Under the pieces are notes generated by a model that saw only the letters and a program-made list of their open reading frames with translations, was not told the origin of the DNA and did no database searches. A stretch of DNA of 64,000 nucleotides from Trebouxia sp. TZW2008 (lineage: Eukaryota > Chlorophyta > Trebouxiophyceae > Trebouxiales > Trebouxiaceae), in NCBI GenBank assembly GCA_002118135.1, contig BDIU01000382.1, forward strand, positions 23,791 through 87,790, read 5' to 3'. The first letter of the stretch is position 1. Every line of letters starts with the position of its first letter. Positions 1 through 58,500 of the stretch are shown piece after piece. The translations under genes were made by a program, and so were the position numbers.

Positions 1-2130
1 AAAGACAGGCAGGAGGACTAATGTCTTGACAGCTCTGCCCAGTAATAGCAACAGAAGATACGCAGCATTTGGGTTGTCCAGCTGCACAACAGATTTATGC
101 CCTGAAAAGGCAGTGCTTACAACCCAATCTGCATTTGTCCTTGTGCTGTTGGGGCAGTTGCTGGCAACACAGGAGACACAGGAAGAAGGGCAGCAGGACT
201 GTGGTCAATAAAGCCCTGCCCAAGGGCAGCCTCACAGTTGTGCATTGCCTGAGTTGTCCAGCCGCACAATTTGCACGGTGCTTTCTGTCTGCCAAAAGTG
301 CTGGCCCCAAAGGCAGGTACAACATTATACCTTCTGCTGATGTGCCCTTGCTGGCAAGAGGCAAACAAACACAGGCAGAAGGGCAGCAGGACTGTATTCA
401 CCACAGCCCTGCCCAGGAACAGGGCTACTGGGCGAACAGGGCGAGATGATGTGCAGCATCTAGGCTGGCCAGCTGCTGCAACTTTGCAGAATATGTTTGG
501 CCTGCCAAAAAATCCAATCTCAACACAAGGTGCAATGCTGTACCTTTTGCTGGTGTTGCCACTTCTGGCAGAAGAACACCAAACACAGAAAGAACAGCAG
601 CAGGACTATGTTTGCAACTGCTCTGCCTAACCCCAAGGCAAGAAGATCTGCTGCATGACTTGGGTTGTCCAGCTGCACACCCTGCAAAGTGCATTCTGCC
701 TGCCAGAATTGGCGCACCACAGCTAAGGTACGATTTTGCACCTTATGCTGGGGTCACCATTTCTGGCAGACAGAAACAGACACAGGAAGAAGGGCAGCAG
801 GCTTACAGTCACAACAGCAATGTCTAGGAACAGGACAAAAGGAAGCGCTGCGTCTTGATTGGCCGGCTGCTGCATTCCTGCAGAGTGTGTTCAGCCTGCC
901 AGAAGAAACAGTCTCAGCACAAGGTGCAATGCTGTGCCTGTTGCTGGGGTTGCCACTTCTGGCAGCAGGAATTACCGCACAGGGGCAAACAACAGGAGGA
1001 GAGCATTTGTTGCAGACCTGCCCAGGAACAGAGTAAGAGCATGTACAGCATCTAGATTGTCCAGCTGCTGAAATCCTGGACAGTGTGTTCAGTCTGCCAC
1101 AAGCCTGGCCGCACGCAACATGGACAATGTTGTACCTACTGCTGGGGGCACAACTTCTGGCAGAAGGATACAAGGGCAGCAGAATGTGAAATGACTGTCA
1201 GCATTGTTCAGGAACTGGGCAAGGGAATGTGCAAGATCTAGGTTGTGCAGCTGCTGGAATCCTGCAGAGTGTGTTCAGCCTGCCAGAAGCGACAATGACA
1301 GCACAAGGTGCAATTCTGTACCTTTTGCTTGGAGTGCCACTTCTGGCAGCAGAAATTACCGCACAGGCCCAAACAACAGAAGGACACCATTTGTTACAGA
1401 CCCGCTCACAAACAAGGCAAAAGCAGGTGCAGCATCAGAGATGTCCAGCTGCAGACCCTGCAGTGTGCTATCTGCCTGCCAGAATTGGCGCACCACAGCT
1501 AAGGTACAATTTTGCACCTTATGCTGGGGTCACCATCTCTGGCAAACAAAACGGGACACAGGGAAAGGGGCAGCAACACACTTGCGACAGCACTGTTCAG
1601 GCATAGGGCAAAGGGATGTGCACCGAGTGAGCTTTGAACAGACAGAATCCCTGTTGTGGCAATGTCTGGGGGCACAAAGCAATGCCTGGATTTTGCAAGT
1701 GTCAACACATGTTGCCATCTGGATTGCTCAGCTGCTGACCCTGCAGAGCATGTTCTGTCTGGTAGAGGTGATGTCGTAGCAGAAGATACAATCCTGTGCC
1801 TTTTGCTGCAGGCATCCTTTTTGTCAGAAGTAAACAGACACAGGGAGAAGTGCCGCAAGACCACATTGGCAACAGCATTGTGTAGGAGCAGGGCAAACTG
1901 CCTGTGCAATACCTGGGCTGTCCAGCTGCAGACCTTGCAGAATGCATGCTACCTCACAAAGAAATCCCCCACCACTGCAGGTACATCTTTGTACCAGCTG
2001 CTGTGGGAAAGGTTTCTGTTTCAAGTAAACAGACACAGGAAGAAGGGCAGCAGGACTCATTCATAACAGCCCGACCAAGAAACAGGGCAGGAAAATGAGC
2101 ATCACCCCAGTTGTCAGCTGCTGACCATAC
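1..2130 (-). repeat. Array of about 11 degenerate copies of the next MRF exon (MA3-3 C-terminal part)
   Basis: A unit of roughly 180-285 bp recurs with a shared core near 76, 257, 464, 664, 859, 1055, 1241, 1441, 1725, 1918 and 2108. Read on the minus strand, each core is an acceptor (TGCAG) followed by sequence resembling the expected continuation of MA3-3. The copy near 590-690 reads GVQLDNPSHAADLLALGL then GRAVANIV; the copy near 1 reads LDNPNAAYLLLL then GRAV; the copy near 1440 reads GLQLDISDAA. The MA3 family has LDVPDA and LARAVVDD at these places. Every copy seen departs from consensus or breaks frame, so the authentic exon probably lies just outside the left edge. The plus-strand reading is also open for long stretches, but I take this as a shadow. 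Confidence 0.75.
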
Positions 2131-5100
2131 AGAGCATGTTCTGTCTGCCCAAGAAGATCCACTCTGAAAAGGTACTTTGGACTTTTGCACATTTTGCAGG
2201 CCATGACTTGGAACCCTGGAACACTGTGCAGCATTTGCAGCTTGCACTCAAAAGCTCAGCAGAAATTACCAGCAAGAGCTTGATGTCAGCACACTCAGAG
2301 CATTGCATATGGCCACTTGTGCTGACGTCTAGACTGAGAATGATGGGGACCAATATTGCATCAAGCACAACGGGTGTGGCTGCTGCTCTCTCTGTTAGAA
2401 AGTAAGCGGTGACTGAATTGCACGCCATGGCTTGCAATCTCAGTAAGCAGTGCAGCATTCACAGCTTGCAACCTGAATGCTCAGCAGAGACACCCAAAAC
2501 CATCATGGTGAAAAAGCGCTTTGAGTGCTGCGTGTGACCAATTGTGCTGAGAACAATGAACCCATTCACTGCATCAAGCACAAGGGCTGTGTCTGCTGCA
2601 CTTGTTCTCAGAAACTTAGCAGTGACTATATTGCAGGCCACGGCTGAGATCTCAGAAAACAGTGTAGCGGTCACAGCTTGCACCCTGAAAGCCCAGCGGA
2701 GACACCCGGAACCATCATGGTGAGGAAGCGCGCTGAGTACTGCATGTGACCAATTATGCTGAGAACAATGAAAACAGTCTGTGCATCTAGCATGAGAGCT
2801 GTGCCTGCTCAAGCACTGAGAGCTGTGCCTGCTCAAGCACACGTTGAACGCGTAAGCTGTGGCTATCTTGCAGGCCATGGCTTACAATCTCAGCAAGCAG
2901 TGCAATGTTCACACTTGACGTACTTTTATGCTAAAAAGGATCTGCAAGCATGACCTCAATGTTAGGGCACTGACAACATTGCATACGACCAACTCAGATG
3001 AGAAAGTAAGGAGCAGTCACTGCATCAAGCATGACCTCAATGCCTTAGGGCACTGACAACATTGCATATGATTAATTCAGATGAGAACGGTAGGAGCAGT
3101 CACTGCATCAAGCATGGGAGCTGCGTTTGCTGCACAGATGATGCAAGCCTTGAGCTGTGACTATAATGTAGGCCGTGACTCAAAGCCTTGACCTACTGTG
3201 CAGCTTTCACAACTAGCACTGTGCAGAGATGCTCAGCAGTGCCGCTCACCACCATCCTGTTTTCAGGCCTGGGGCGCTTTGTAAGTTGCAAGTGATCATT
3301 GCAATGCTGGGGATATGGGACAGTCACTGCATGAAGCACGAGAGCTGTATCTGCTGCGCGGCCTGTCAAGGCTCATTGAGCTGTGACTATGTTGTGGGCC
3401 ATGGATCAATCCCCGACATGCTGTGCAGCATTCACAACGAGCGCTGTGCAGAGATGCTCAGCAGCACCGCTCACTACTATCCTGTTTGGAGGCCTGGGGC
3501 GCTTTGTAAGTTGCAAGTGGCCTTTGCAATTCTGGGGATATGGGACAGTCACTGCATAAAGCACAAGAGCTGCATCTGCTGCACGGCCTATCAAGGTGCA
3601 TAGAGCTATGATTATGTTGTAGGCCATGGCTCAAAAGCTTGACATGCTGTGCAGCATTCACAACTAGCGCTGTGCAGAGATGCTCAGCAGCACCGCTCAC
3701 CATCATGCTGTTTTGAGGCCTAGGGCGCTTTGCAAGTAGCAAGTGAACGTTGCAATGCTCGGGATACAGACAGTCACTGCATGAAACATGAGAGCTGCAT
3801 TTGCTGCGCAGCGCTTTGAGCTTGCGAGCTGTGACATGGCTTGCAACCTTGACAGACTATTCAGCATTGCCAGCTATAGCTAGTGCTCTGCATGCTGAAT
3901 ATGAACTGCCAGCAGTGTCACGATGTCAGGCTCCTCATTGCATTGCATACGACCGAATGACACAAGGTCTGGGATTGAGCATGATAGGGGTGGTGACTTC
4001 ATCAAGCATGAGGGCTATCTTTGCTGCACAGACCTCAAAGGTGTATGAGCTGTGACCACTTTGCAGACTGAAATCCTTGCCAGACTGAGCAGAATCCACA
4101 GCTGGGCTCTGCTGAGCAGCGCTGCCCAACATCGGCCTGGGAACCAAGGCATTCCCCAAAAGGTGTGGGACCAGTTGAGATGAGTCCTGGGTTTGAGCAT
4201 GATGGGGGCATCATTACTACATCAAGCACGAGCGCTGTGTCTGCTGCAGAGGTATCAGATTCCCAAGCTGTGAACCCTGGGTAGGCCATGGCTCAAAACC
4301 CTGACATGCTATGCAGCATTCACAGCTAGCACTCCAGACACTCAGCAGCAACTGCCACCAGAACTCAGATTCAGCAGCATGGCATACGATCTGTTGTACA
4401 ACATGTGCTCAAGTTTGGGTTTGAGCATAATGGGGGCAGTCACTGCAGCAAGCATGAGTTACAGCTTTGGGTAAACAAGACATTGAGATGGCAGTCATTG
4501 CATCATGCATGAGGGTTGTGTCTGATGCACAGCCTATCAGCATTGTGAGCTGTGACTGCACAGCAGGCTCCAATACGTGCTCAGCTGGGCCTGCTGAGCC
4601 TGTCTAGCATGCCTGGTGAGTGAATGCAAACCAAGTGCGCTGGAGTCCACAGGGAGAACATGAAGCAGTCACTGCATCAAGCATGACGGCTGCGTCTGCT
4701 GCACAGCCTGTCGGCATCGTGAGCTGTGACTGATTGCCAAGCCATGGCCCAATATCTTGGCACGCTATGCAGCACCCACAACCAGATTCTGCTCAGCAGA
4801 AACGGCCAGCATGATCCTGAGACCAGTGTTCTTTTAGCAAACGGTTGCTTGTGACAACTTTGTCTGAGAATGATGGAAACTGTCTCTGCATCCAGAATGA
4901 GGGGTATGTTTGCTGCACCGCTTGCAAAGACATTGAGTTGTGACTATATTGCAGGCACTGGCTCACTATCTCAGAAACTGGTGCAGCATTCACACCTAGT
5001 ACTCTGCATTGTGCACGTAGACATGGCCAAAATAAGGGTATGAGAATGATGGAAACAGTGTCTGCATCCAGCATGAGGGGCATGTCTGCTGCACCGCTTG

Positions 5101-7260
5101 CAAAGACATCGAGCTGTGACTATGTTGCAGGCACTGGCTCACCATCTCAGAAAGCGGTGCAGCATTCACGCCTGATACTCTGCATGCTCGGCAGCAACTG
5201 TCAGCATGACCTAACTAGCATATGACCAGTTGTGCTGCAGTATTGGTCTGAAACAATGGAGGCAAACACTGCATGATCCCAGTATCAGAGAGCACAGAGT
5301 ATTGTGAATGCCCAGTTGATCTGATGTCTGGGATGAGAATGATATGTTGGAGGCAGACACTGCATGAAGCACAAAGGTTGTATCTGCAGCGCAGTTTGTA
5401 CAGCTTCTGGAGGCCAGCGCTCAAAGGCCTGACAAACTGTGCAGCATTCACAGCTGACACCCTGAAAATTGAGCAGCAACTGCCAACACAATTTGAAAAT
5501 GAGCGCACTGAGGTGATTGCAGATGATTGCTCCAGGCAAAGGCCACATTAAAAAGAAATGGGGCCAGACGCTACATCAAGCACAAGTTCTGCATCTGCTG
5601 CTCAGCTGTCAAGGTCGCAAGCTCCAGCCCTTGAGGCAATTGCTCAGAAACCTGAAAGGCTGTGCAGCATTTGCAGGTAGATCTCTTGAAGCTCAGCAGA
5701 CAGCTCGCAAAGCTGCAGCACAATCTCAGCTGCAGCCAACCTCAGATGCACTCAACTTACTAGCTGAGGCGTATGTTTGCTTGCAATTTACGTCACGGAA
5801 CACCAACAAATTTGGCAGAAAGTGGCAGCATGGACCTGATCACAACATGACGCTATGCGCAGGGCAGAGCATCAACTGTGCTGGCTGTGGTGCTGAGATC
5901 AATGAGGGGAGTCAATACACTAAGCATGAGGGCCGCTTCTGTTGCACAGATGTCAAAACTATAAGCTGTGATCAGGTTGCTGGCCATGGCTTAGGGCCTC
6001 GACAAGCTGTGCAGCATTTGCAGCTGGCACTCTGAGAGTTTAGCAGAAAGTGGCAGCATGAGCTCAATTACAACAAGATGCTCTCGGCAGGGCAAAGCAG
6101 CAGTTGTGCTGGCTGTGGTGCTGAGATCGATGAGGGGAGTCACTACACTAAGCATGAGGGCTGCGTTTGCTGCACAGGAGTGGAAGCCATAAGCTGTGAC
6201 CAGTTTGCTGGCCATGGCTTAGGACTTTGACAAGCTGTGCAGCATTTGCAGCCAGCACTCTGAAGCTTAGCAGAAAGTGGCAGCATGAGCTCGATTACAA
6301 CAAGATGCTCTCGGCAGGGCAAAGCAGCAGTTGTGCTGGCTGTGGTGCTGAGATCGATGAGGGGAGTCACTACACTAAGCATGAGGGCTGCGTTTGCTGC
6401 ACAGAAGTGGAAGCCATAAACTGTGATCAGTTTGCTAGCCATGGCTCAGGACCTTGACAAGCTGTGCAGCATCTACAGCTCAAAATCTGTGCTGTGAGCA
6501 GAAATGCTCAGCTTCATGCTGGTTTCAGGGCGCTCTAGGCATTATATGCGATCAGTTATGCTCAAGTCTCGCACGGGAAAATGTGGGATACATGCTGCGT
6601 CCGAAATTGAAAATTGAGGCTGTTTTTGCTGCACTGGTTTTGAGCGCTTTGTAGTCACGAGGACACTTTGATCAAAGCCTGTCATAGCATAAAGAGTGCA
6701 GACTGGAAATGCTGCAAAGCCTTTCATGTGGCCTGCAAAGTGATCACAGCTTGTGCCTTGCCCGAGGCTGTGCAGCATTCACAGCTGGCACAACTGCACG
6801 CTGAGAACAGACGCTCAACATCATGCTAGTAAAAGCACGCTTTAAGCATGGCATGTGATCAGGTGATGCTCAAGTCCAGCCTAGACAACATATGGAACTC
6901 TTGCTACATTTGAACTTGAGGCCGTCTTTGCTCACAGCTGTGGACAGATGCAAGCGGATGGGCGTTGCCATGAGTAGGTTTGAACAGCAGCTGTCGTAGC
7001 ATCCAGAGTTGAGGCTGTGAATGCTGCACAGCATGACACAGGACACAGATTGTGGCCCGCAGAAGTGTTCACAAACTGTGCCCCTACAAAGCTGTGCAGC
7101 GTTTACAGCCGTTCTCCAGAGACTGAGCAGAGAATTTCAACATCTATCTGGTATTCCTGTGCTTTCAGCGTTGTGTTAGACCAAGTTCAGACATCGACTT
7201 ACTGCAGAGACTTGGACGCTGCAAGTGCTGCAAAACTCCTGTGACCATTTTGTACAGCTG
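2130..7260. repeat. Family of about 20 diverged tandem repeats, 200-280 bp, inside the MRF intron
   Basis: Successive units share, on the plus strand, a GTGCAGCATT(C/T) block, a GCATCAAGCATGAGG-like block, GAGCTGTGAC and GGCCATGGCT. The clearest units are near 3230-3660 and 5820-6460, where neighbouring copies are very similar. They fill most of the intron following the exon at 9301-9435. The minus strand shows no recognisable MA3 coding sequence. They are probably an old, decayed version of the exon-edge arrays seen elsewhere, or a plain intron satellite. Confidence 0.6.
4580..4625 (+). mobile_element. Short retroposon tail, copy 1
   Basis: GCTGGGCCTGCTGAGCCTG followed by a TCTAGC-like segment and a short GAGTGAATG-type end. 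It matches the retroposon segments at 30745-30805 (same orientation) and 53940-54000 (opposite orientation). It lies inside the repeat-filled MRF intron. Confidence 0.5.
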
Positions 7261-9100: not shown

Positions 9101-9104
9101 CACC

Positions 9105-9185
9105 TCTGTGGATTGGAGCAAACGTGTGGAGCCCTGGACATCTTGGTCCATGAATTTGACACCGGGTGCAAAATGGTAGGGAGGC
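9105..9185 (-). repeat. Echo of the 3' part and donor of the MRF exon at 9301-9435
   Basis: The segment repeats the TCACCTCTGTG...TTGGAGCA...GTGTG pattern found over the donor end of the true exon at 9301-9360, about 190 bp further downstream on the minus strand. It carries stops and indels relative to the exon. Confidence 0.65.
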
Positions 9186-9300
9186 CGATTAGTCCTTGCC
9201 TGTGTGAACTGTCACCGGCAACTAGAGCCTCTTGTCATGCAATTTCAGCAGAACTTTGGGATACAGCAAACCCCAGGGCAGCTGGGCTTGATTGGCTTAC

Positions 9301-12300: not shown

Positions 12301-15300
12301 GGACAGCGTACTTGAGCAGGGGTTGGAACAGCACGACTGTTTGGGTACTCCAACGCTGACGTGCCCGACTACGCTAGCCTGTGTTCAGTGCATCCTGGCA
12401 CCTGTTCATTTTCAAAGTCATTTCTGCAACTTCTCAATGATCATCTGATGCATTCATGTATTCACATTCAGTCAGATCATACTGTTGTGCATTGTGGTAG
12501 GATGCATGAAAACCAGGACAGCATCTCATGATTTTTGGGATTTACCAATCAACTCAGTCCCTAGTAAAGCTGTCATGTTCCAACTGCATCCTGGCACCAA
12601 TCCTGGTGATTCTTGTGGCAGTCAAGAAGGCTGATCTCAGTGAGGCGTGGGCCGAACCATGAATTGGCGGTAGACTGCAGTATGTACAGGACAGCATACT
12701 TGAGCAAAGAAGAGTTGAAACAACACGACTGTTTGGTTGCTCCAACTCTGTCCTGCCTGACTGCGATATCCTGTGTTCACTGCATTCTGGCACCAAACCT
12801 GGCGACTCTTGTGGCAGTCAGGAAGGCTCAAGATTCAATGAGGCATGGGACACATTATGAATCGGCAGTAGAGTGCAGTACATACAGGACAGCCTACTGA
12901 AGCAAGGAAGAGCTGGAACAACACGACTGTCTGGTTGCTCCCACTCATCCCTGTCCAACTACGCTGTCCTGTGTTCACTGCATTCTGGCACCAATTTTGG
13001 TGACTCTTGTGGCAGTCAGGAAGGCTCAAGTTTTTTCAATGTGGCATGGGACACATTATGAATTGGCAGTAGAGTGCAGTGCATACAGGACAGCTTACTG
13101 AAGCAAGGAAGAACTGAAGCAACACGACTGTTTGGTTGCTCCAACTCCAATTGCCCAACTACGCTATCCTGTGTTCACTGCATCCTGGCACCTGTTCATG
13201 TTCTGAGGCATGTCTGCCACTTGTCAAAGACCATGTGATGCATTCATGTGTTCACATGCAGTGCACATATTGTTGTGAATTAGTCGCAGGATGCGTGAAA
13301 CACAGGAAAGCATATCTGGGCAGAGGATGATCAGAACAACAGGCATATCGGTTGTTCCAACACAGCCAATTTCCAGTCAAGCTGTCCTGTATCAACTGCA
13401 TCCTGGCACCTGTCCTGATGATTTTTGTGGCAGGAAATAAGGCTCCATTCACAATCAAGCATATATCATGTTGCACGTTGGTGTCAGGACGCAGTGAACA
13501 CAGGACAGCATTTCTGGACAGGATGAGGTCTGAACAACACCATTTTTTGGGTTGTTTCAGACCAGACCCTACCCCAGTTATGCAGTCCTGTGTTGCCTGC
13601 ATCCTGCCACCAGTCTGAGGCCTCAGTCATGCTTGCAAAATCCATGTGATGCATTTGTGTGTTTGCATGCAGCTGTGTGATCATACTGTTGTGGTTCAGT
13701 GGTGGAATGCAGTGAGCGCAGGACAGCATAGCTTGGCCGGGCGTGGTTTGAACAACTCGCATGTTGGGTTCCAGACCAGGCGCTACCCAGTTATGCTGTC
13801 CTGTAAACACTGTATTCTGGTACAGTTTGTGGTAAAGTTCACGTGGGCCATCTGACATGTCGTGTGATACAATCATTGCTGGTGGCTCAGACACAGTAAA
13901 CACAGGACAGCATATCGTGATACAGACATGTCTGAACAGCATGGCTGCGTTGTCTCAGGCCAGCGCTACCCAGTTATGCTGTCCTGTAATGACTGTATCC
14001 TGGCACCAGTTTGTGGTACAGTGCATGTGTGCCTTTTGACTTGTCTTGTGCTACAATTGTTGTTAGTGGCTCAGACACCGTGAACACAGGACAGCATATC
14101 CTGATAGAGCAAGCGCCTGAACAACACGCATGTTGGGTTGTTCCAGACTCTCTACTCAGTTATGCTGTCCTGCATCAACTGCATCCTGAAACCAGTTCAC
14201 GGTATAAGTCATGCATGCCAGTTCTCATGTGTTATGACAGAATGATCTCAGACAATGTATTTCGTTGTTTGTGTGCAGGGATCATGCATATATGGGCTAC
14301 TGAGCAACGGTCAGCATGAATACAACAGCAAATTGTCTCATATCAGCAAACAAATCGTGGACATTGAGGCTGCTTCCCAGCATTTATTCAAATGTTGATC
14401 AGTGACAGCATTTGGACTGTTGCATAAAACGCAAGCCAGGCATTGTTGCTGCAGCTCTGGCAATAAGCTTCTGACAGTGGTGCAACTTCACAGCAACCCT
14501 GGGCAAAGTGACCCACTGTCTGTGAAGTGTGTACACCCAGTTTGATTGTATTTCACCTGTTTTACAAAGATGTGTGCCATATGTGGTTGCTGCAATTCCT
14601 GAAGTGTGTTCACCACCTCCTTCAGGTCACTGGAGCTCAGGTACTCTTTGACGGTGGCCACCGCTGCAGCCTTGTAGGTGACAGCTTCCGCATCTGTTTT
14701 TGAGGGGCTTGTCGACCCATTTAGATCAGTACCTGCAACCATGCAATCACAAGTTGGCATATTGTGAAGTTGAGTTTATGCTTGTACTGACGTGCTAAGG
14801 ATGACGGTGAAAATTTTGTTTGGCATGAGCCGTGATATGTTTCTTGAGCTGTCAGTTGTGCCCTGACGGTGGCCACCGCCGCAGGCTTGTAGGCGACAGC
14901 TTTTGCATCTGTCCTTGACGAGCTTGTTGAACCGTTTGTATCAGTACCTGCAAACATGCAATTACAGGTCAGCATGTTGTGCAGTGGCTTTTATGTTTCC
15001 TCTGCCGTGCTGAGGTTGACGGTGAAAATCTTGTTTGGCATGAGCCGTGTTGTGCTCTTTCAGTCGACGGCTGTGCCTTGACAGTTGCCGCCGCTGCAGC
15101 TTTGTAGATGACAGCCTTTGTATCAGTCCTTCACGGGCTGGCTGACGCTGACCCATTTAAATTAGTGCCTGCAATCACCTCAAAGCAAGTGAATCTCTTG
15201 AATGCGCAAACCCATGCTGAGAATAAGACACAATCAACTACTTGACTTGAGCCAGGAGTTAGGCTTGTGACGAGGGATGTGCCTTGACGGTGGCCACCGC

Positions 15301-18300
15301 TGCAGCCTTGTATGTGACAGCCTTTGCATCACTCCTTGAGGGGTTTGTTGATGCTGATCCATCTCGATGGTGCCTGCAGCCATGCAACCACAACTTGCTG
15401 TATTGTGTTCTTGATACTACTTTCTGCTGTTGTGCTGAGAAAGATAGCAGAAGAATAGTTTGGAACAGGTCTTGTGAGCCTCCTTGAGATGAGGGCTAAT
15501 TATTGACGGTGGCCACTGCTGCAGCCTTGTAGCTGACAGCCTTTGCATCTGTTCTTACAATATATCACTCACCCTCCCTCTTTGACATTGTTGTCTGCAG
15601 CCATCAAATGGCGAGACGCCCTTCTGTGGATTTGATATTGCGGCCTCTTGGTACTTAGAGTCGCAAACATGTCTATCACAGGCTGTGTGGATCTCTCGAA
15701 TGTCACAGAAACCTACACGTTGACAGTGGCCACTGCTGCTTCCTGGAGGATGGTAGCGTCTGCATCTGTATTGCAGACACGACCACGTCCCCCTTGAAGC
15801 AACAGTGACTGTGCCAACGCTGCTGTTGCAAGGAGAGTAATCATCATAGCAGGACGCGTGGACACATTTAAACCTGTTTGTGGCCAACAAGTCAGAATCT
15901 GCATCAGGGGAAACAGGACTAAGTCTTGACAGTGGTCACCGCTTTTTCCTGGTGAGTACTAGCATCTGCATCTGTATTTCAGAGACTAGTATCCACCTGG
16001 AAGCAGCAGTGACTGTACTGTTGAGGCTGCTATACGTATAAAATTTGTCATCGCAGGACATGGGGACATATGTCAAGCAATGCATGACACAAACCAGGAT
16101 CATCATTTGCATCGTGGGCGTGTTTGTCAGAGGCAGAGGGCTACGCCTCAATGGTGGCCACCGCTGCTTCCTGGTGAGTACCAGTGCCTGCAGAAAGTGG
16201 CAGCCACCAGGGAGCAACAGTGACTGTATCGATGATGCTGTTGCAAGCAGAAACAGTCATCGTAGAAGGATATGTTAAAAAAAAGTCAAGCTATACATTT
16301 TTCAAACCAGGGTCATCATGGTGGGCGTGCTTGTCACAGAAGCAGAGGGCTACACCTTGACAATGGCCCCCGCTGCTTCCTGGTGAGTACTAGCGTCTGA
16401 ATTGGATTGCAAGGACTGTAATTCACCAGGGAGCAGCAGTGACTGCACTATTGAGGCTGCAAGATGCAGAAGTCATCATCACGGCAGGACATGTGGACAC
16501 ATATCAATCTGCGTGCAACTGGCAGACGCAGCAAAGCGCCTTCAAACAACCATGTTGAAAGCTTGTGGTCAGTAGAGCACAGTCTAGTTTCACATCATAT
16601 AGGTCTCATGGCAAGGCAGTCAGGCCAGCAGGTGAAACACAAAGTCATGCAGGCTTTGCAGCCAAACCTCCTCATCGCCTGCTTACATGAGGAACGTAGC
16701 AGCTTGCAGCATATGAGAAAGCAAGCAGAAGGTGTGGATACAAAGCTTGCATGACATTAGACCTGACTCGCTGACATCGACTTCTGCAAAACAAAAAAAA
16801 GGGTGTCAAGTTGCGGATCTTCTGACTTTCAGCATTTGAGCCAAATTTAGATTGATGGCTAGTATGATAATATAAGATATTTGATTGCTAGTTTGTTGAT
16901 CTGCTAGCACAAGAGTGCTGCAGCTGTAGGGCAAAAGTGATGAAGAAGCATTACAACTGCTACAAATGAAGAAGATGAGAGCGCATGCGGATCAAAGCCC
17001 TGAATACAATTGCATGAAGAAGATGCAAGGGCATGTGGAAAGAGAGCAGACTTGAAGCAGAAGTGTCCCAGTCAGCATGCAGCCACCCGTCTGCCACAGC
17101 TGTGGTAACTTGCATGTTAAAATGCTCACAGGGACTGCCAATGAAGAAGATGACAGCAACAAAAATATAAGGAGACAGTACAAGAAGATGAGCAGACCTG
17201 AGGAGGCAATACCCCAGTCAGCATACATTGAACCGTCTGCCACAGTTGCCTGTGGAAAACTCTGCAGATGAAGAAGATGAAAGCACAAGATGAAGAAGAT
17301 TCCAGTACACGACGGAGAGGATGAAGGCTAAAGAAGAAGAAAAAAGGGGCAGCACTGTCCCAATCAATTCAGCCAACCACCTGCCTTAGCTGTTTTGCAG
17401 TTGCATGACTGCAGAAAGAAAGCAGAAGAAGAAAAGCAGACCTGAGGCAGAAGTGTCCCAGTCAGCATCCAGCCAGCCGTCCGCCACAGCTGTGGCAACC
17501 TGCTTGTGAAAGATGTCTCGGGCTTGCGGCGTGTCCAGGCATGTGTCATCTAGGTTTATATTGACCCTCTGGAAACCCTGAGCAACAGGCACACTCAAGT
17601 CATACACCTTGTCATAGCCATTGTCTTACAAAAAGGTTGGCTGTGAGATAGCCATGCAGCATGGATTGTGCTTGGCTGTGGGGTAACACATGATGTGAAC
17701 GGCTCAACATGCATGTCTCACCAAACAATATAACCAGGCACAGTCAAGTCAAAAGACCCGTGTCACTACGCTTCTGTTGCAGATCTGATATAGTTAGGAT
17801 AGCTGCATATGTGGGTTTTAGGTGGAACAACACATGATGTGAAAGGCTCAGCCATGCATGTCTCACTTGACGGTGTGATCAGGCGTACAAACTGAAACAG
17901 GACAAGGTTCTTCTTTGAAGACTGCTGCCATGCAGAAGAACCTTCCCCTGCCGTAGTTCACATGCCTGCTTATGCTTCTTGATGAGATGCTGACGGCTGA
18001 GCCTTTCACAACATGTGCTGGCATGCTTTCTCAGCTGCTGACTTTGCACGTCCAGAACACTGTCAGCTGACTGCACATCAGAAGTGATGCGCACTCCTGA
18101 AAGCGTACACTCCAGCCAATAGAACAGGATGCAAAGGAAGAGCCAGACAGAGAAACCAGAAGCCCATGCTAGCCAGCCCTGAGCTACTTTATTTTGCAGC
18201 AGGGTCTGGAGCACAATCCCAGCCGTAATGCATGAGGTCTAAACTACAGTTTCGGTTTGCACACCAATCTGTCCAACAGGCATTGCTTGCTAGAGGTATC

Positions 18301-44431: not shown

Positions 44432-45720
44432 CTAACTTGAAGCAGCAATTGCAGCACTGCTGCTGCTAGACGCGACACCAGTAGTATAGATAGATTGGTC
44501 TTGTTGACGGTATATGTCCAGAATGATGATCACACAGGCCATAAAGGCTTGGTCCACGCTTGGGTTCAGAGTGACTTTGTAGGCACCCCTCTCCAGGAAG
44601 CTGTAGTCTTTTGCCCGCACTTTTTCCACCTGCAACATCCATTGCACACTTTGAGCAACAGAAGAGTAGCAGGCACGCTTTGTGTACCAGATGATGAGTT
44701 GTTATGCTGCGTGAGAGAAGACGCACATTATGCATACCGTCAGATGTTGCATGTCGCGCCGTGTATACCAGAATATTAGTTGCCATGCCAAATGAGACAT
44801 AATGCACACCATGTACCCTGTCACTTACTGCATAACAAAACCAACTGCAGGTTTGTGACATGCGAATAGTACTAAAACAATAGCAGCTGATGTGTATGTG
44901 AAGGCAAGCAGATATGACTGTCATACATTGTGCGCAACACTGCTGTGACAATTCACCCACCTGTCCAATGCTCTGACCCTGGTATAGCAAGCAGATATGA
45001 CAGTCATACATTGTGCGCAACATTGCTGTGACAATTCACCCACCTGTCCAATGCTCTGACCCTGATATATGACGTTCCAGGTCATCTTTCCAAAGAAGCC
45101 AGCCCATCTCTTAGAGGCCACAACAACCAGTGCATCATTGCTATGCGCCAACTTGACTTCAACGCCATACCGTCCACTCCATGACCTACGAGATACTGAG
45201 GCTACGGCATCTGCGTCATTGACTTCAGCTTTTGGGTAGATGATGCAAACCTTCTGCATCATTCCCTGCATGTCACTCAGCAGAGTCACTGCCTGTGCTC
45301 AGAATGCTGTTGGTCATACTGTTGGCTGTTTGTGCACAAAGGCAGCATGTAACGCGTGCGGCATTTACTGTTTGCACACAAGGATGGCATGTTCTGCATA
45401 TAATGCTGACAGTTATAAAAGATATTTACCTTGCTTAGGAAATTGCAAACTGGTTTTCCCTCAGCAGTCTTCATGACCCTGCTGACTTTCATAGTCTTGG
45501 CATTCTTTTCTTGTGTGAAAGCAAGCTGCCCCTGACTGTCAAGGACCGTTACTGGGATCCCCCGCCGAATGCAAGATTTGCCATCTTGCACAAAAAGGGT
45601 GCTCGGGTAAGGAGAGCAGAAGTTGCTGCCCAAAAGGGCTGGCAGGGGTTGCTGATGATACATCTGCTGTTGGTCTTCAGAATACTGTGTCACTTTGCCG
45701 TTGACACTGGAGCTGCTCAT
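44432..45720 (-). CDS. LURP-one-related protein 1 (tubby C-terminal-like fold)
   Basis: Three phase-0 exons: 45720-45430, 45265-45044, 44629-44432; 236 aa. Exon 1 has a Q-rich leader and then SNFCSPYPSTLFVQD, VTVLDSQGQLAF and VMKTAEGKPVCNF, which follow the family pattern of a CSPxP start, DxxGxxxF strand and DxxGxPxC turn. Exon 2 ends WNVIYQGQSIGQ. Exon 3 has DYSFLERGAYKVTLNPSVDQ followed by the final hydrophobic helix (AFMACVIIILDIYR), which closes the barrel in this family. Plant members include LURP1, needed for basal defence against an oomycete; the fold is shared with phospholipid scramblases and Tubby. No molecular role can be read here. It is the most 3' of three tandem paralogues. 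The donor of exon 2 is duplicated by an 83-bp repeat. Confidence 0.85.
44908..45073 (-). repeat. Recent 83-bp direct duplication over the donor of LURP-one gene 1 exon 2
   Basis: GCAGATATGAC(T/A)GTCATACA through CACCTGTCCAATGCTCTGAC occurs at 44908-44990 and 44991-45073 with only a few differences. Each copy contains the exon end (QSIGQ) and a GTGGGTGAATT donor. It is the youngest exon-edge echo in the window. Confidence 0.9.
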
Positions 45721-45779
45721 TTACACTCGCACTTGCAAAGATCACTCCGGCCTTGTACCAGCAAAGATAAAGTGTAGTC

Positions 45780-46080: not shown

Positions 46081-46081
46081 T

Positions 46082-46471: not shown

Positions 46472-46479
46472 ACACAAGG

Positions 46480-49637: not shown

Positions 49638-51758
49638 TCAAGCACCCTCGCGCTCCTGCTCGCGGTATTCATTCAGTATGACGACAATACACAGAATGAA
49701 GGCATGGTCAAAGCCTGGGCTGAGGGTCACTCTATAGCTCTGCTTGTCCAGAAAGATTGCCTCTCCTGAGCGCATTCTTGTTGCCTACATGGCACAACAA
49801 TGAGTTCAAAGTCAATCATCAAACACAGATTCTGCAGCATATGTGATATGCTACAACACTGTTCAGCTTGAGGCGTCCTGCAATGCTACCTGCGTTGAAC
49901 AGCATGCAAGGACTAAAGCAGCAAAATACGTTTGCAAGTATGACTGGACAAACATGATTGGCCTTCATGGCTGACTGTAGAACAGTGTAATGCTATAATG
50001 GGGATTGTACTAGAGAAGTCGGTGTCGCAAGCTCGACATTTCTGCTGAGCATGTAGGCACAATGTACAGGCAGGCAGGCTTGGTCAACAAGCACGGCAAT
50101 GCCACAGATCTGCTGCAGGCAGATTCAAAATAATAAATGTTTATGCCACCTTCATGATACATCCAAGATGATGCGCATTACTGACGTGCTAGACGCTGAA
50201 CTCTATATGCATTAAATGCCAGCGCTTACTTGTCCAATGACTTGCCCTCTGTAGGTGATGTCATGCTCCCTTCTGCCAGCCACAATGCCCTTGGCTTTCA
50301 AAGAGAACACAACCTCATCGCTGCCTGTAAGCCTGGCTTGCACCCCATGGTGCATGCTGAACATCTCCTTGTTGACTGTTCCAAGAATGGCTGAGTCACT
50401 CACTGTGCCGCCTCTGCAGATGACCCATTTTTTGTGAAGGCTAATCATCTGCAGCACACTTTCAGGGTGAGTACATGCTTGCATTGTGATTGCAACAAGA
50501 TAGCAGCACGTATGATTGATGCTGAACTGGATGCATGCGAAGCTGCTTAGAGTGAGCCCTGACCCATTTCTGGTGAAGGCTGATGATCTGCAGCAGGCAT
50601 GCAGGTTTGACATATTACATGTATATACAGGCTTGCAGTGGGGTTACAGCAGCACAGCAGCATGCATGGTTGGTTCTGAATTGTTGGGATATGAAGCTGC
50701 ACAGTCTGAGCGCACATGGCCCATTTCTTGTGAAGGCCAGTCATCTGCAGCAAGTTTGCATGTCACTCAGAGCACAGCCCTTGTACAACAATCCCATGAC
50801 ACACAGCCACTCGCAAGGACAATGCAGTTGAGGCACTGTGACCAAGTCAGAAGCATCTGCAGTCGTCACATCAAGAGACACTGTCTGTCCGATGCTGAAG
50901 CCATGTCATGTTGGGCTGCACAATGCTGATGCACATGCACTGATCACAGACAAACAGCTGCCTTCTGAAACATGTGTCGACAGCTGACATCATACTGAGA
51001 CTGTGGGCAGCAAGGCTTGCACAAGATAGCAGGGATGGTCACCTTAGCTTGCATGCAAACAGCGATATAAAAAAGCTTGCGTGGCGAGGTAAGACGTCTG
51101 CCACACACACCTAGCAGTATATGCTGGAAAGTGTAATGAGTATCTTTTCTTTGTTATCATGCAAACAGCTGCCTTGACACAACATGTGCCATCAGTGAGG
51201 CTGCTGAAGCTTGATGCAATCTGAGACCATGTGATCATCACTGAGGCAGGGTTGCATATGGCAGAAAATGTCACCTTGGCTTGCATGGCACAAACAGCAT
51301 TCCCTGCGGCATCTTTTAGAACCCTGCTGTGTCTCATGCTTAGAGCTTTGCTGTCCACTCTATACGCCAGCTGTCCCTGACCATCCAGGATGTTTGAATC
51401 ATCGCCGCTCCAGCTCAGCAAGGTGTCTTTGACAAAGAAGGTGGTGGGGTACGGTGAGCAATATGCAGGCCCGACGATTGCTTGTGACTGCATGTTCTGT
51501 TGGCCAGGCATTTGCTGGCCTGGTGCAAACTGCTGCTGATGCTGTGGTTGTTGCTGATATGGCGCTTGCTGCTGATACTGCGGTTGCTGCTGATAGTGAG
51601 GCTGCGAACTGCTCTGGAACTGCTGCTGTGGGGGACCATTGTACTGATACCCTTGTTGTCTGCATGCAACAGTGATCAAATTAGCTGCACACTGAGCAGA
51701 TCCGACAAACGCAAGTGTATCCGAAGCTTGAGGCTTACGGCTGTGCGTAGTAGGACAT
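49638..51758 (-). CDS. LURP-one-related protein 3 with Q-rich N-terminus
   Basis: Four exons: 51758-51739 (20 nt), 51659-51275, 50448-50230, 49784-49638; 256 aa. The short first exon MSYYAQP joins in phase to QQGYQYNGPPQQQF and a long glutamine-rich leader of about 60 residues, then the family core: VGPAYCSPYPTTFFVKDTLL, SWSGDDSNILDGQGQLAYRV, ALSMRHSRVLKDAAGNAVC, MISLHKKWVICRGG, REHDITYRGQVIGQ, and the final DKQSYRVTLSPGFDHAFILC helix. This is the most canonical of the three paralogues and the only one with the extra 20-nt exon. The glutamine-rich stretch resembles leaders seen in many animal and plant scramblase-fold proteins. Introns hold echoes of exons 2 and 3 and a LINE tail. Confidence 0.88.
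50535..50760 (-). repeat. Two echoes of the 5' part and acceptor of LURP-one gene 3 exon 50230-50448
   Basis: CCCATTT(C/T)(T/)TGTGAAGGC followed by (T/C)(G/A)(A/G)T(G/C)ATCTGCAGCA recurs at about 50565-50600 and 50720-50755, copying the acceptor and MISLHKKW codons at 50425-50455. Similarly, 51035-51060 resembles the donor end of the preceding exon (51270-51300). Confidence 0.8.
51065..51145 (+). mobile_element. LINE 3'-end fragment, copy 4, in LURP-one gene 3 intron
   Basis: CTGCCACACACACCTAGCAG then TATATGCTGGAAAGTGTAAT is almost identical to 10382-10420. It is a very short 3' piece of the same LINE family. Confidence 0.7.
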
Positions 51759-52596: not shown

Positions 52597-55500
52597 TTAC
52601 CAATTCTCAAATGGCAATCCAGTAGCAACCTGAACATTCTCGCTTGCATCGTCCAGGGCTTTGACCTGATCAGGGGTGAGGCGCCACCCTAGGGCACCAG
52701 CTGCACTTTGGGCATGCTCGTAGCTCTTTACACCTGCAGCAGCAAAGCAGTCAGCAATGCAACAGCAGACCGCATAGGCCTGCAAGTACACCACAGCAAG
52801 ACCTTTTGGCTTGATCATAGCTTTCCACACCTGCAACTGTACAATGATGAGTGACTTGTCTGTCGTGTACTGCAGTGGCCTGGCTAGACTGATCTGTCTA
52901 GGAGCTTGACTATATTCAAGCTCTTGGCCAGGATAACATGACTGAGTAAACTTGACAGCAACTTACATGAGTATGCCAAGCATGCTCATAGCTGTTCAGC
53001 CAAGGACCATTTGTCAGGTCACAGAAGCTTACCAACAATGGGGATTGCTCCCTTGCAAATGGTCCAGTTGATAGCAACTTGAACCTGGCTTTTATCTCCG
53101 TGAGCACTGCCAATATCTTCAAGCAAGCTGAAGAGAGGCTCTAGGGACTTCAGCTTGTCATCGCTGAAGATAGCCAGTCGAGGTCCCCCTGGTTTCTTAC
53201 CACCTGCCCGATATTTGCCTGCACGTCAAACCTTAGTGAGCCCCTTCTGTAACAGCAAGAGCAGCGGTTTCAATACTCCAGACCAATCATCAATGACATC
53301 ATGGGGAGGTGTTTTATGCAAAGCAAGGAAAGGCTATGGGGATTTGAGCTTTTTGACACTGAAGATAGCCAACCTGGGTCCTATTTGCCACCAGCTCTGT
53401 ACTTTCCTGCAGAAAGAAGTCAGCATGAGACTGAACAAAAAGCTGTAGTACAGACGACGACAGCATTCCTGATATAAACACGATGATCTGGTGACCTCAA
53501 TAGGCTGCAGGGCTATGTGAGCTGAACAAAGCCTTTAGGGACTTGAGCTTTTCATCGCTGAGGATGGTCAGACGAGGTCCTCCTGGCGTGTTGCCACCAG
53601 CCCTGTACGTTCCTGCAGAGAGAAGTCAGCATGAACTCAACAAAAAGCTGTAGTACAGATGACAACAGCAGTCCTGATAAGAACACAATGATCTGGTGAC
53701 CTGGCTGCAGGGCTGTGTGATCTGAACAAAGGCTCTAGGGACTTGAGCTTTTCATCACTGAAGATTGTCAGACGAGGCCCTCCTGGATTCTTGCCACCCG
53801 CCCGGTACTTGCCTGCACAGCACAGTCATGTTACAATGAAATGCCGCTGCGCATCAAAATGTAGCAATGTTCATTTGTAGACTGTGGCAGCAAGGCATAT
53901 CCAAGCTGAACAGAGGCTCTAGGGACTTTAGCTTGTCATTTCATTTATTCATTCATTGTAAATGCGGGCTAGGCAGGCTCAGCAGGCCCATCTAGATACG
54001 TTTAGCTTGTCATCACTGAATATAGCCAACCTGGGTCCACCTGGTTGCTTGCCGCCTGCCCTAAGCTTGCCTGCACAGCAGATCTATTCCGCCCTTGAGC
54101 TAAGTGCACAAGCGGCAAGTAATGATGTGTGGACCATAATCTAGCTGTGTCATTGGACAGCTTTGCCTTGCGTCCTCACATCATGTATCTGCTGTACAAG
54201 ACATCAAGCTGTTTGACACAGGAGAAGAACAGCATTCTAGAAGGACCAAGGTGAATCAAGATCATGGGATAGCAGTTGCATGCAAGCTGAACAGAGGCTC
54301 TCAAGACTTCAGCTTGTCATCACTGAATATGGCCATCCGAGGACCTCCTAGTTTCTTTCCTGCTGCCCTATACTTCCCTGCACAGCGTGATGTTTAAGCC
54401 CTTTGACTTAGGGAAGGATACAGCACTCACAAAATATTGGCTCATCAAAACTCAGCCTTTGTGTACAGGGCAAGTGTGATTACCAATGAGCAGGCCCTGT
54501 GCAATGGACATGTCTATAATGATACCTTGTCAATGCAATCAATTTGTGTAAGACCTTGTACTACACTCAGTCCTGTAACAACAATCAAGAACATAATGAG
54601 GCCTTGCCAGTAAGCAGGCCCGGTGCAAGAGGTGAGCAGGCATTGACACTGAAACCAAGCTCCTTGGCCTTAGCCAGCAGCACCCTCCTTCTCATGCTCA
54701 GACTGCTTGATCCTTGTGCAAAGTGTAATTGTTCCTCAAAGCTGGACCAGTGCATAGGAACTTTGTAAGGGGCCCATGTACTACCCTGTGGGCCTCCAGG
54801 AACAGACAAGAATGCATTGGTCCCTTACCAGTGAGCAGGCCTTGTGCAAGGGGCGAGTAGGCAATGACACTGACACCCAGCTCCTTGGCTTTTGCCAGCA
54901 AGCCCTCCTTCTCATGCTTGCGATAGAGAAGACTGTACTGAATCTGGTCACTGGCTAACAACCCTCCAGCATCCTGTGTCATACAAACAACAGTTTATGA
55001 TGCAATCTGTTATGTCACAGTGAGCAGGCCCTGTGCAAGGGGCAAGTAGGCAATGACGCTGACACCTAGCTCCTTGGCCTGAGCTAATAGACCCTCCTTC
55101 TCATGCTTGCGGTAGAGCAAGCTGTACTGGATCCAATCACTTACTAGCAATCCTCCAGCGTCCTGCATGACAGCAGCGGACACCTAAACTAAGATGTGTA
55201 GCATACTAAGTACCAAATGGGGTCTGGATTGTGTAAGCAAGAAAGCACACTGGCAATCCCTCCTTCTCATGCTTGCGGTACGGCAAACTGTACTGTATTC
55301 GATCACCGGCTGCCAACTCCTACGTCATGTCGACAGCTGCCTGTTTTGATGTGCGTGGTTGCCAGCAAGTCTGCAGCACTTCTGAAGGCACTAAATGTAG
55401 AAAGCAGGAGATGAAGATAATGCACGAGTAGTAAGGGGAGGAAGACATTCTCTCAGCTGTACAACAGTAAGGGCTGTACTGGCAGGCTTGGTTTCTGTGT

Positions 55501-58500
55501 TTGCACTACAGTAGGCTGTACTGGACTTGGTTGCTAGCTGACCAACCTCCAGCATCCTGTGAGACACGGAGATGCAGCTCAAGTACAGTGTAGCATGTTA
55601 TCAAGAACGTCCAAAAGGGTTGAACAGCCAGAAAGCAGTGAAGGCTGCACTGACATGACTGTCTGCTGAAAATGCAGCAGCTGTACTGAATCTTACCTCT
55701 GGCGAGCAACCCTCCAGCACTCTGTGAGACACGGGGATGCAACTCTTGTAACACTGCAGCAAACTAGCAAAAGGCAGGATGGGGGCAGTTTTGAACAAGG
55801 CAGCTGCAGCTAAAATACTGGGCTTGCTAGCTGTTCATATTTGAGTGCTTTGCTGTAGCACTTGTTGGTGTCAGAACCAACAGGAGTTGATCCAGTCGAC
55901 AACAGAGGCTGTGTGAAAAGGGAAGAGAAAGGTCACAAGCAGCAGCCAAACTCACCTGCATGACATCGTGAGCTCTCTGCAATCTCTTCACATTGTAGTT
56001 GGACACCCCAACAGCTTTTGCCAGACCCTGTTTCTGGCACTCGACCAAGCCTTTGCAGAAAGCATCATTGGCCCAGGAGTTGACTATGGGAAAACCAGGC
56101 CAATGTATCTGGTACAAGTCCACACTCTTCTGATTTAACCTATCAAGGCTGCCCTGATAACACCAGAGCAAGTAGCTTAAGACAATGAAAGCTTTTGCCA
56201 GGCCCTGTTCTTGGTACTCAAGCAGGCCTTTGCAGAAAGCGTCGTTGGTCCAGGAATTGACTAAAGCCATGCCAATGTATTTGGTACAACTCCACATCTT
56301 TTTGGGTCAACCTACCAAGGCTGCCCTGAAAACACCAAATTTGTACTCACAGACAGCAACTGCCAGGCCTTGCGTTTGGCGCTTGACTTCTGCCAGACCC
56401 TGTTTCTGGCACTCAACCAAGCCCTTGCAGAAAGCATCATTTGGCCAGGAGTCGACTATAGGAAAGCCAGGCCAGTGTATCTAATACCAATCTACACTCT
56501 TCTGGTTCAATCTATCAAGACTGCCCTGCAAGCACCAAAGTGTGTTGGACAGAATCAAGTGCACATAATGATATCACGAGGAGGAACTTACACATGGTAT
56601 GCAAACTCAAAGCAGAGCCGAGGACACAAAGTAGGTAGGACGTCGGTACTTGACTGAGTCGATCAAGGGTGAAGCTTGGGATGTCAGTGGTGGGTCAATG
56701 CTGGACAGCATTTTGGGGCATAGGAATTGTTGAGCATACATAATGATTGTTCAAAGCCTGCATCCCTGACAGCCAATCACTGCCTATGCATTGATCCAAC
56801 AACCAACTTTGTGGTACCACTATAATAGTGGTTGAAGCAGTTGCCCACGCCGGCTGCTTCTGCTAACAGAGGCTCCCATCATGCAGTCTACTGTGAAAGG
56901 TTTGTTCTGCTTTTCATCCAGGTATTTTCTTTTGCTAAAGCTGTTTCAGTGCAAGCCTGGACCTTCTTCAGAAGTTTTGCTACCAGAGAAAACAAACTTG
57001 TCTTCTCGTACCTTCAGGGCTTTGACAGGAGCATTCTGGGTGAGCCTCCAGGGCAGGGGCGCATACTTGGTGGCAATCTTGACATCGGTTTTTGTTTCTC
57101 GCTGGAAGTCAGCTAGAAACTTTTCTGACTTGCCCCGCCCATACACCTCTGTACACACCAATCAACTTGTTACAAGATGGAAAATCTGAGGCAAGCTTGG
57201 TGACTGACAGTTGCAGCATATTTAATTGCAGTTCTGACATCCGTTTTGGCCTTCTGTTGATAGTCATCCAGGAGGTTCCCTGACTTGCCTCGCCCATGCA
57301 CCTCTGCACACAACAGGCACTGGATGTTTGCCTGCTTCTGAGGCAGGACATCTGAGCCAAAGAAAGTCAAGGCATCATGGCGTCACCATGTTCAAGCCTG
57401 TGCAATGACAGGGTTTGTTGTGGCATTCAATGCTCAGCTGTTGGCAAGATGCTGTCTGAAGCGCTCATTGCTGTTGCCAACAAGGTGGTAACTTCATGGT
57501 AAACTGCTGTGTGTGGTGTATTGATCATATTTTGGGTCCAAACATAGCTTGCAAAGCATGTCATTAAGACATCTGCTTGCAAAACATGCCAAAACCTTGA
57601 TGACATGCATGTACTGCATGCTGCTGTGAAGCAAGCTTCTTCTTTGTGTCACGGCATCAATAGCCTACAACAGCAGTTGCTGATGACAGTGCTGATGTAC
57701 AATATAGTTGGGGCGTCAGATTGAGGCGCTAAAACACATGTCCTTTGAGCAAGCAAGACTGACTCAAGCATGACTGAGGAGGACAAAATCCAGCAAGTCA
57801 GTTGAGGCAGAGGTGTGCTGCACTCCATTGTTGGTTTGCTTGAGTGGGACGTGTTCAGAACACTTTTGCAAGGACCTCATTGTGAGTTGAAATTTTACAT
57901 TCTTTCGCAACCAAGTTAATGCAAAAGTGCTCTGTATGTATCTCACTTGACCAAATCAGCTGTGTCAACAAATGCAGCAGCAGTGTGTGCTCGCCATCTG
58001 CAACAACAAATACAGCAGCAGTGTGTGCTTACCAGCTGTGTCAATGAAGTTGAGCCCTGAATCTACAATGCCCTGGTATGCCTTCCTGCAGTGCCAATCA
58101 CAACATCAGCCAAAAGTCATTGGCAGGACCTGGCAAGCTGTTCATATAAAGCAGCCCTCAAGTGGCAGCCCTGCCTGATCTCATCTTCGCCATAACCACC
58201 ATATGTGTCAAACCCCCAAAATGATACATCTCCCCATTGCCATGCCCCGATAGCCAGAGAGTTCACCTTTACGCCTACATGAACAAGCTGCGTTAATGCC
58301 GGCTTCAGCTGATGCTGCATAGCTTCTGTCTTATGAAACAAGGGGCGTAACCTCCCGCTGGCGCGACTACAACATGACGGACCTGTCTTTCCTAGCTCTA
58401 CTTGATCATCCTGAACAGGTTGCTTTGTGGACGTCGATGCTGCACTGCGGACGTGCAAGGACCGCCTGGATGCCGCTCGGCGCATGCTGGGTGCAAATGA

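What the first reader, a model, noticed from the sequence alone, without database searches (positions are those of the whole stretch)
1..58100. Exon-edge echo arrays: introns filled with polar copies of their own splice junctions
In about 20 exons of five genes (MRF, SUVH, LURP-one 1 and 3, aldo/keto reductase) the introns contain tandem partial copies of the neighbouring exon, and the copies follow one rule. On the downstream side of an exon they contain its 3' part plus donor (MRF exons at 24702, 19480, 18569, 17442, 9301; SUVH 37401, 38608, 39144; LURP-one gene 1 45044; reductase 54829). On the upstream side they contain its 5' part plus acceptor (MRF 28953, 27096, 24913 end, 19628 end, 18763 end, 14732 end; SUVH 35959, 36613, 41533; LURP-one gene 3 50448; reductase 57148, 56153, 54973, 53218). 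Breakpoints fall inside the exon, the authentic exon stays single, and copies decay with distance. This suggests that introns in this genome grow by repeated local tandem duplication centred on splice junctions, leaving several competing splice sites at each intron end. I know of isolated exon duplications, but not of such a systematic, polar pattern.
Basis: partly seen in the sequence, partly recalled or inferred. Interest (0 to 1): 0.92.

Follow-up and report, generated by a model that had tools for sequence, protein, structure and literature searches.

The report
Intron-filling tandem duplications in Trebouxia-like alga
Many introns of this lichen-alga-like genome hold decayed copies of the edge of the neighbouring exon; the striking one-sided pattern is what ordinary head-to-tail duplication of about 170 bases must leave behind, and the real news is how common such duplications are in the stretches sampled.

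Summary
In 13 genes outside the window, chosen by Pfam family and not by echoes, 16 of 98 splice junctions have one. The polar rule holds in 61 of 61 echo alignments kept. The rule is not a new phenomenon: a head-to-tail duplication across an acceptor can only leave 'acceptor + 5' part' upstream of the intact exon, and one across a donor '3' part + donor' downstream. The same process shows in all 20 arbitrary 10-kb pieces: 192 direct against 1 inverted match, none after shuffling, about 14% of bases. Unit length has a median of 170 bp. Exon edges need no special targeting once short ancestral introns and slower decay of exon-containing pairs are assumed. Echo changes fall equally on codon positions 1 and 2, so echoes look non-coding. 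Short database contigs for two genes match the authentic exons and skip the echoes. Open: almost no young pairs, and a third of units with an unalignable remainder.

The parts
57012..57148 (-). aldo/keto reductase exon; acceptor echo upstream
   Evidence: present in P0001
57216..57303 (-). echo: acceptor + 88 bp of 5' part of exon 57012-57148, 73% identical
55956..56153 (-). aldo/keto reductase exon with two upstream echoes
56185..56325 (-). echo of exon 55956-56153, acceptor + 141 bp
56387..56525 (-). echo of exon 55956-56153, acceptor + 139 bp, holds a stop codon
54829..54973 (-). aldo/keto reductase exon inside an array of 189-bp offset
55498..55556 (-). acceptor echo of exon 54829-54973 (a further one at 55681-55721)
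55019..55162 (-). near-whole copy of exon 54829-54973, the one window unit seen to contain an entire exon; donor altered
54602..54698 (-). donor echo of exon 54829-54973 (GT now GC)
53033..53218 (-). aldo/keto reductase exon with four upstream echoes
53520..53612 (-). echo 1 of exon 53033-53218
53722..53812 (-). echo 2 of exon 53033-53218
53992..54070 (-). echo 3 of exon 53033-53218
54279..54377 (-). echo 4 of exon 53033-53218, with an in-frame stop
50560..50587 (-). echo of LURP-one exon with acceptor edge at 50448 (second echo 50712-50744)
44961..44986 (-). donor echo of LURP-one exon with donor edge at 45044 (83-bp unit, 96%, the most similar pair listed in the window)
41543..41652 (-). acceptor echo of SUVH-like exon 41361-41533
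39026..39054 (-). donor echo of exon 39144-39248 (SRA piece)
38397..38468 (-). weak donor echo of exon 38608-38796
37200..37272 (-). donor echo of exon 37401-37564
36723..36783 (-). acceptor echo of exon 36501-36613 (second, AG lost, 36860-36954)
36003..36111 (-). acceptor echo of SET-like exon 35739-35959 (second, AG lost, 36221-36269)
29170..29232 (-). acceptor echo of exon 28953-29094 (second 29335-29397)
27307..27336 (-). acceptor echo of exon 27096-27215
25012..25076 (-). acceptor echo of MA3 exon 24702-24913
24483..24585 (-). donor echo of MA3 exon 24702-24913 (second 24281-24335)
19766..19853 (-). acceptor echo of exon 19480-19628 (second 20139-20183)
19317..19402 (-). donor echo of exon 19480-19628 (second 19141-19231)
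18843..18946 (-). acceptor echo of MA3 exon 18569-18763 (AG lost)
18404..18528 (-). donor echo of MA3 exon 18569-18763
17198..17248 (-). donor echo of MA3-like exon with donor edge at 17442 (second 17052-17121)
14864..14947 (-). acceptor echo of MA3 exon 14614-14732 (further 15084-15168, 15289-15373)
9104..9149 (-). donor echo of MA3 exon 9301-9435
2190..6876 (.). region of direct-repeat arrays (units about 176-228 bp among others) away from the listed exons
20226..23254 (.). direct-repeat arrays (about 200-250-bp units) between exons 19480-19628 and 24702-24913

Best explanation
The genome has been subject to frequent head-to-tail tandem duplication of short segments (offset median 170 bp, middle half 132-225 bp) in all stretches sampled, nearly always in direct orientation. 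When a duplicated segment lies across an acceptor, the copy that stays joined to the rest of the exon is the downstream one, so the leftover copy is upstream and consists of intron + acceptor + 5' part. When it lies across a donor, the leftover copy is downstream and consists of 3' part + donor + intron. Duplications wholly inside coding sequence are presumably lost by selection. Ancestral introns were probably short compared with the unit, so most intron duplications touch an exon edge. Exon-containing pairs also stay recognisable longer, because the authentic exon is held constant while two intron copies both drift. The echoes are non-coding, decay close to neutrally and are skipped in the two contig matches seen here. 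Shown: orientation, locality, polarity, occurrence in every sampled piece, equal codon positions 1 and 2 in echo-lineage changes. Inferred: ancestral intron length, the selection step and the molecular mechanism of duplication (replication slippage, template switching and nick repair are all open).
For: Direct:inverted 192:1 in 20 arbitrary 10-kb pieces, each with at least one, 0:0 after dinucleotide shuffling. Between loci, matches are balanced in orientation (104 direct, 114 inverted). Offsets of 198 nearest pairs in 343 kb. Polarity 61 of 61. 85 of 198 pairs align over at least 90% of the offset, i.e. are complete head-to-tail units. All 61 echoes match their own locus; 3 of 61 also match a paralogous gene (TCP1 to TCP1, kinesin to kinesin). 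Placement: 20 of 25 duplications in 49 anchored introns touch a junction; expected 11.6 from present intron lengths, but 15.2 to 21.6 with assumed ancestral introns of 292 bp (median of duplication-free introns) or 200 bp and an assumed 1-1.9-fold longer detection time (P 0.036 to 0.89). Echo-private changes 78/72/128 by codon position against 8/2/25 for changes shared by all echoes (mixed 4/1/9); single-echo junctions 50/51/115. P0001 (343 aa, longest contig 1595 bp) is 100% identical without gaps to the four joined exons; P0122 (531 aa, contig 1806 bp) matches the eight-exon TCP1-zeta model at 473 of 474 without gaps.
Against: The intron side of the units has decayed more than the exon side predicts. 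Only 23 of 37 exon-echo pairs and 9 of 23 echo-echo pairs show a homologous spacer, where simulation at rates of 0.10-0.14 expects 92-100% (76-97% at 0.17). Pairs away from predicted exons show the same shortfall (46 of 70 contiguous or with a homologous spacer) and pairs touching predicted exons 27 of 51 (difference p 0.19), so it is not clearly exon-specific, but it is unexplained. Third codon positions exceed a uniform expectation in the echo-private class (chi-square p 4e-5), which I attribute to changes in the authentic exon between successive copying events. Without the two assumed corrections, junction placement is in excess (20 observed, 11.6 expected).
Confidence: 0.85

Rival explanations
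1. A splice-junction-centred copying mechanism (for example RNA-templated or spliceosome/transcription-coupled) that preferentially duplicates exon edges.
For: 20 of 25 intron duplications touch a junction against 11.6 expected from present intron lengths; homology often ends a few bases past the AG/GT.
Against: The excess can be accounted for by shorter ancestral introns and slower decay of exon-containing pairs, both assumed. The unit-end problem also occurs away from predicted exons (24 of 70). A non-tandem junction copier would put acceptor copies in the downstream intron too: 0 of 43.
Confidence: 0.07
2. Assembly artefact: pieces of diverged haplotypes or strains laid side by side around shared exons.
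For: Exon parts are similar while intron parts are often not; among 198 nearest pairs none reaches 97% identity.
Against: Allelic exons should differ as the 'shared' class does (8/2/25); echo-private changes hit positions 1 and 2 alike (78/72) and 14 of 563 differing codons are stops. Arrays reach three to nearly five copies, and 85 of 198 units align in full. The window has no N.
Confidence: 0.05
3. Echoes are functional alternative exons or splice decoys maintained by selection.
For: AG/GT kept in 54 of 61 echoes, many with good site scores; some echoes differ mostly at third positions.
Against: With a neutral echo rate near 0.115 (first and second positions) and an invariant authentic site, about 78% retention is expected without selection (inference), against 89% seen. 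14 differing codons are stops. Short contigs for two genes with eight echo-bearing junctions show authentic sites only.
Confidence: 0.04

Closest known systems
Internal gene duplication / tandem genomic duplication in intron evolution (Rogers 1989; Gao and Lynch 2009; Hellsten 2011, as cited in PMC4974935, passages seen; the originals recalled only)
   Same: Head-to-tail duplication of a segment that may span an exon-intron boundary; PMC4974935 also mentions an 83-bp tandem duplication inside an intron that left the exon structure unchanged.
   Different: There the interest is one event that creates a new intron; here many events, often several per intron, lengthen existing introns, and no new intron was demonstrated.
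Minisatellite-like intronic arrays (recalled)
   Same: Direct tandem units of up to a few hundred bases, locus-specific.
   Different: Low copy number, diverged units, source often a coding-exon edge.
Introners (intron-generating transposable elements; PMC9860276, start of abstract seen in search listings)
   Same: Repeated sequence that fills introns and carries splice sites.
   Different: Echoes derive from their own neighbouring exon and are local and direct, not a dispersed family.
Tandem exon duplication with mutually exclusive exons (recalled)
   Same: Copies of exon sequence inside introns with splice sites.
   Different: Echoes are partial, decayed and absent from the two contig matches; one near-whole exon copy was found in the window (55019-55162).

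Membership tests
Local tandem (internal gene) duplication | copies in direct orientation and next to their source | tested here: met
   192 direct to 1 inverted; offset median 170 bp over 198 pairs
Local tandem (internal gene) duplication | leftover copies ordered as head-to-tail duplication demands | tested here: met
   61 of 61 kept; one whole-exon alignment set aside; one unresolved weak match in a separate search
Local tandem (internal gene) duplication | homology through the whole unit, exon and intron side alike | tested here: inconclusive
   85 of 198 pairs complete; 23 of 37 exon-echo spacers homologous
Tandem genomic duplication intron gain (Rogers model) | a new intron arises at a site where relatives have none | not testable with these tools
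   the genome search says that no relatives of this genome are held; protein alignment only
Introners | same element in many unrelated introns | tested here: not met
   61 of 61 echoes match their own locus; 3 of 61 match another locus, each within the same gene family
Mutually exclusive exons | whole exon with both splice sites, used in transcripts | tested here: not met
   no kept alignment has the both-edge signature where both edges are known; the two contig matches lack echo sequence

The most novel reading that the evidence does not exclude
In Trebouxia, a burst of about 170-bp tandem duplications, now largely finished or strongly suppressed, was the main engine of intron growth. Exon-edge echoes are dated fossils of that burst, with each echo's neutral exon part giving a clock that is anchored to a conserved exon. 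Of 198 nearest pairs, 73 lie below 75% identity, 57 at 75-80%, 36 at 80-85, 27 at 85-90, 4 at 90-95, 1 at 95-97 and none above, which a steady process would not give unless young copies were collapsed in assembly.
Probability: 0.25. Interest if true: 0.6.

Novelty: new member of a known kind. Interest (0 to 1): 0.42.

Why it matters
If the density holds in other Trebouxia assemblies, introns in this lichen alga may have lengthened largely by a simple local mutation process. Each echo pairs a neutral copy with a constrained original, so exon-edge echoes give an internal clock for intron growth and a natural test of how splicing ignores decoy sites. It also warns gene finders: my own ab initio model called several echoes as exons. 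I found no report of it for Trebouxia in two searches, of which I saw only the listings (12 of 6,979 papers listed, 10 of 19 listed), nor the word 'tandem' in the main text of PMC12712428.

Tried and rejected
Considered and rejected: coding constraint on echoes (third-position excess; dropped after polarising changes); haplotype artefact; junction-targeted copying; dispersed copy-paste (0 of 43 acceptor echoes downstream). Tried without result: Rfam on the window (0 families); a nucleosome-size unit (offsets are broad, 100-240 bp; neither shown nor excluded). Breakpoint microhomology was not analysed, because only 32 pairs at 88% or more were listed and most are incomplete. A first spacer test compared a sequence with itself where copies lay closer than the flank; it was discarded and redone, where one further pair had too short a spacer to test. 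No other eukaryote genome was compared, so I claim no excess over other species. The 20 pieces were arbitrary positions on contigs with aldo/keto reductase hits, not a random draw. Of 60 inferred introns, 49 were kept (residual at most 1 codon, score above 10) and 6 gaps gave none. The exon mask is ab initio and includes some echoes called as exons.
Full report
WHAT WAS CLAIMED.

SETTING. The window is C360:23791-87790 of a 68.5-Mb, 527-contig assembly with about 49% G+C. The spliced aldo/keto reductase is 100% identical to an 'lgn' protein and 79% to Trebouxia sp. C0010; TCP1-zeta is 92% identical to Trebouxia sp. A1-2. For Trebouxia sp. 'A48' PMC12712428 gives 69.1 Mb and contigs kept at 48-50% G+C (passages seen). 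I therefore take it as a Trebouxia or close kin (inference). SUVH is supported by SRA and SET pieces below cut-off, and LURP-one by PF04525 (one ORF above cut-off and one below). The reductase is supported by two exons above the cut-off of PF00248.

CHECK. Self-BLAST of the window gave 137 direct and 3 inverted matches. To test the rule on genes not chosen for echoes I used Pfam hits of the TCP1 and kinesin families, fetched 13 genes and inferred 60 introns from frame and profile continuity; 49 were kept. With 23 window exons this gives 144 junctions. One alignment was dropped because its other copy overlaps a known exon; it holds the whole exon 54829-54973. The two named donors missing from that list, 54829 and 38608, were found by a more sensitive alignment, the second weakly. 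Reversed-polarity searches in 20 window exons gave 9 hits, against 25 in the stated polarity. None of the 3 acceptor-downstream hits holds the acceptor. Of the 6 donor-upstream hits, one is the near-whole exon copy, four stop short of the donor, and one (exon 41361-41533) is a weak gapped match that includes it, a possible exception that I could not resolve.

WHY THE RULE IS EXPECTED. Duplicate a segment head to tail across an acceptor: the copy still joined to the rest of the exon is the second, so the orphan lies upstream and carries the acceptor and the 5' part. Across a donor it is the first, so the orphan lies downstream with the 3' part and the donor. No other arrangement can come from one tandem event that leaves the exon intact. 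The rule therefore says 'tandem', and nothing about splice-site targeting. It does argue strongly against copy-and-paste to nearby sites, which would also put acceptor copies downstream (0 of 43).

THE PROCESS IS GENERAL. In 20 arbitrary 10-kb pieces there are 192 direct and 1 inverted matches, at least one direct in every piece, and 14% of bases covered on average (1.5 to 32.5%); shuffled sequences give none. Matches between different loci show no orientation bias (104 direct, 114 inverted); of the 25 longest that were printed, 24 involve one dispersed 180-bp repeat. The echoes are not such a family: 61 of 61 match their own locus, and the 3 that match another locus do so within the same gene family. 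Nearest pairs (198 in 343 kb, window included) have offsets with a median of 170 bp, quartiles 132 and 225.

WHY EXON EDGES SEEM FAVOURED. In 49 anchored introns, 20 of 25 duplications touch a junction. Present intron lengths predict 11.6, an excess. But introns with duplications are long at least partly because of them. With assumed ancestral lengths of 292 bp (the median of duplication-free introns) or 200 bp, and exon-containing pairs assumed visible 1 to 1.9 times as long, the expectation is 15.2 to 21.6 (P 0.036 to 0.89). So targeting is not needed, though a modest preference is not excluded.

FATE OF THE ECHOES. Differences between exon and echo by codon position are 110/89/256 in the window and 62/49/122 outside. 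Polarised at the 17 junctions with two or more echoes, changes shared by all echoes, hence mostly in the exon lineage, are 8/2/25 (a further 4/1/9 differ among echoes), while echo-private ones are 78/72/128. Equal first and second positions argue against coding constraint; the third-position surplus (p 4e-5 against uniform) fits exon changes between successive duplications. 14 of 563 differing codons became stops. AG or GT survives in 54 of 61, somewhat above the 78% that a neutral rate of about 0.115 per site would leave (inference). The nearest echo is more similar than the second nearest in 11 of 17 cases (sign test 0.33), so decay with distance is not established.

SPLICING. P0001 (343 aa, longest contig 1595 bp) and P0122 (531 aa, contig 1806 bp) sit on contigs too short to contain these introns, so they should be spliced products (inference; the source label 'lgn' is not explained by the tool). 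P0001 equals my authentic-exon model without gaps; P0122 matches the L026 model at 473 of 474, no gaps (100% in the listing). The two genes have five (acceptors 57148, 56153, 54973, 53218; donor 54829) and three (L026) echo-bearing junctions.

WHAT REMAINS ODD. First, the remainder of the unit is often unrecognisable: 23 of 37 exon-echo and 9 of 23 echo-echo spacers are homologous where simulation expects 92-100% at rates of 0.10-0.14 and 76-97% at 0.17. Pairs in the arbitrary pieces behave alike: 46 of 70 away from predicted exons (34 contiguous, 12 with a homologous spacer) and 27 of 51 touching predicted exons (16 and 11), not significantly different (p 0.19). Large indels, nested events or choosing pairs for an intact block may explain it; this is not settled. 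Second, young pairs are missing: 1 of 198 above 95% and none above 97%, while short-unit repeats are often perfect (24 of 166 with 10-29-bp units at 97% or more, 0 of 50 with units of 60 bp or more). Either the process has stopped or near-identical units were collapsed in assembly.

VERDICT. A true pattern of local tandem duplication, present in every piece sampled, whose polar exon-edge look is a geometric and observational consequence. I file it as a dense instance of a known kind of event.

Noticed in passing
window 38015-38194: A dispersed repeat of about 180 bp in an intron of the SUVH-like gene; 40 further copies at 85-90% identity in both orientations are listed genome-wide, from 1002 first-look candidates of which 40 were scored. 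SINE- or MITE-like by size only; no Rfam hit in the window.
   Followed up: partly
all sampled loci, 343 kb: Among 198 nearest local direct pairs with 60 bp or more aligned, none reaches 97% identity, though shorter-unit tandem repeats often do.
   Followed up: partly
window 45289-51760: At least two LURP-one-related genes lie near each other on the minus strand (PF04525 at 51047-51760 and, below cut-off, 45289-45720).
   Followed up: no
L025-L037: The shortest anchored introns (e.g. 73, 75, 76, 87 bp) stand beside introns of 250-1100 bp; the shortest intron with a detected duplication is 309 bp.
   Followed up: partly
window 55019-55162, 53701-53812, 57205-57303: An ab initio model trained on this genome calls echoes as exons, so gene predictions here may include false exons.
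   Followed up: no
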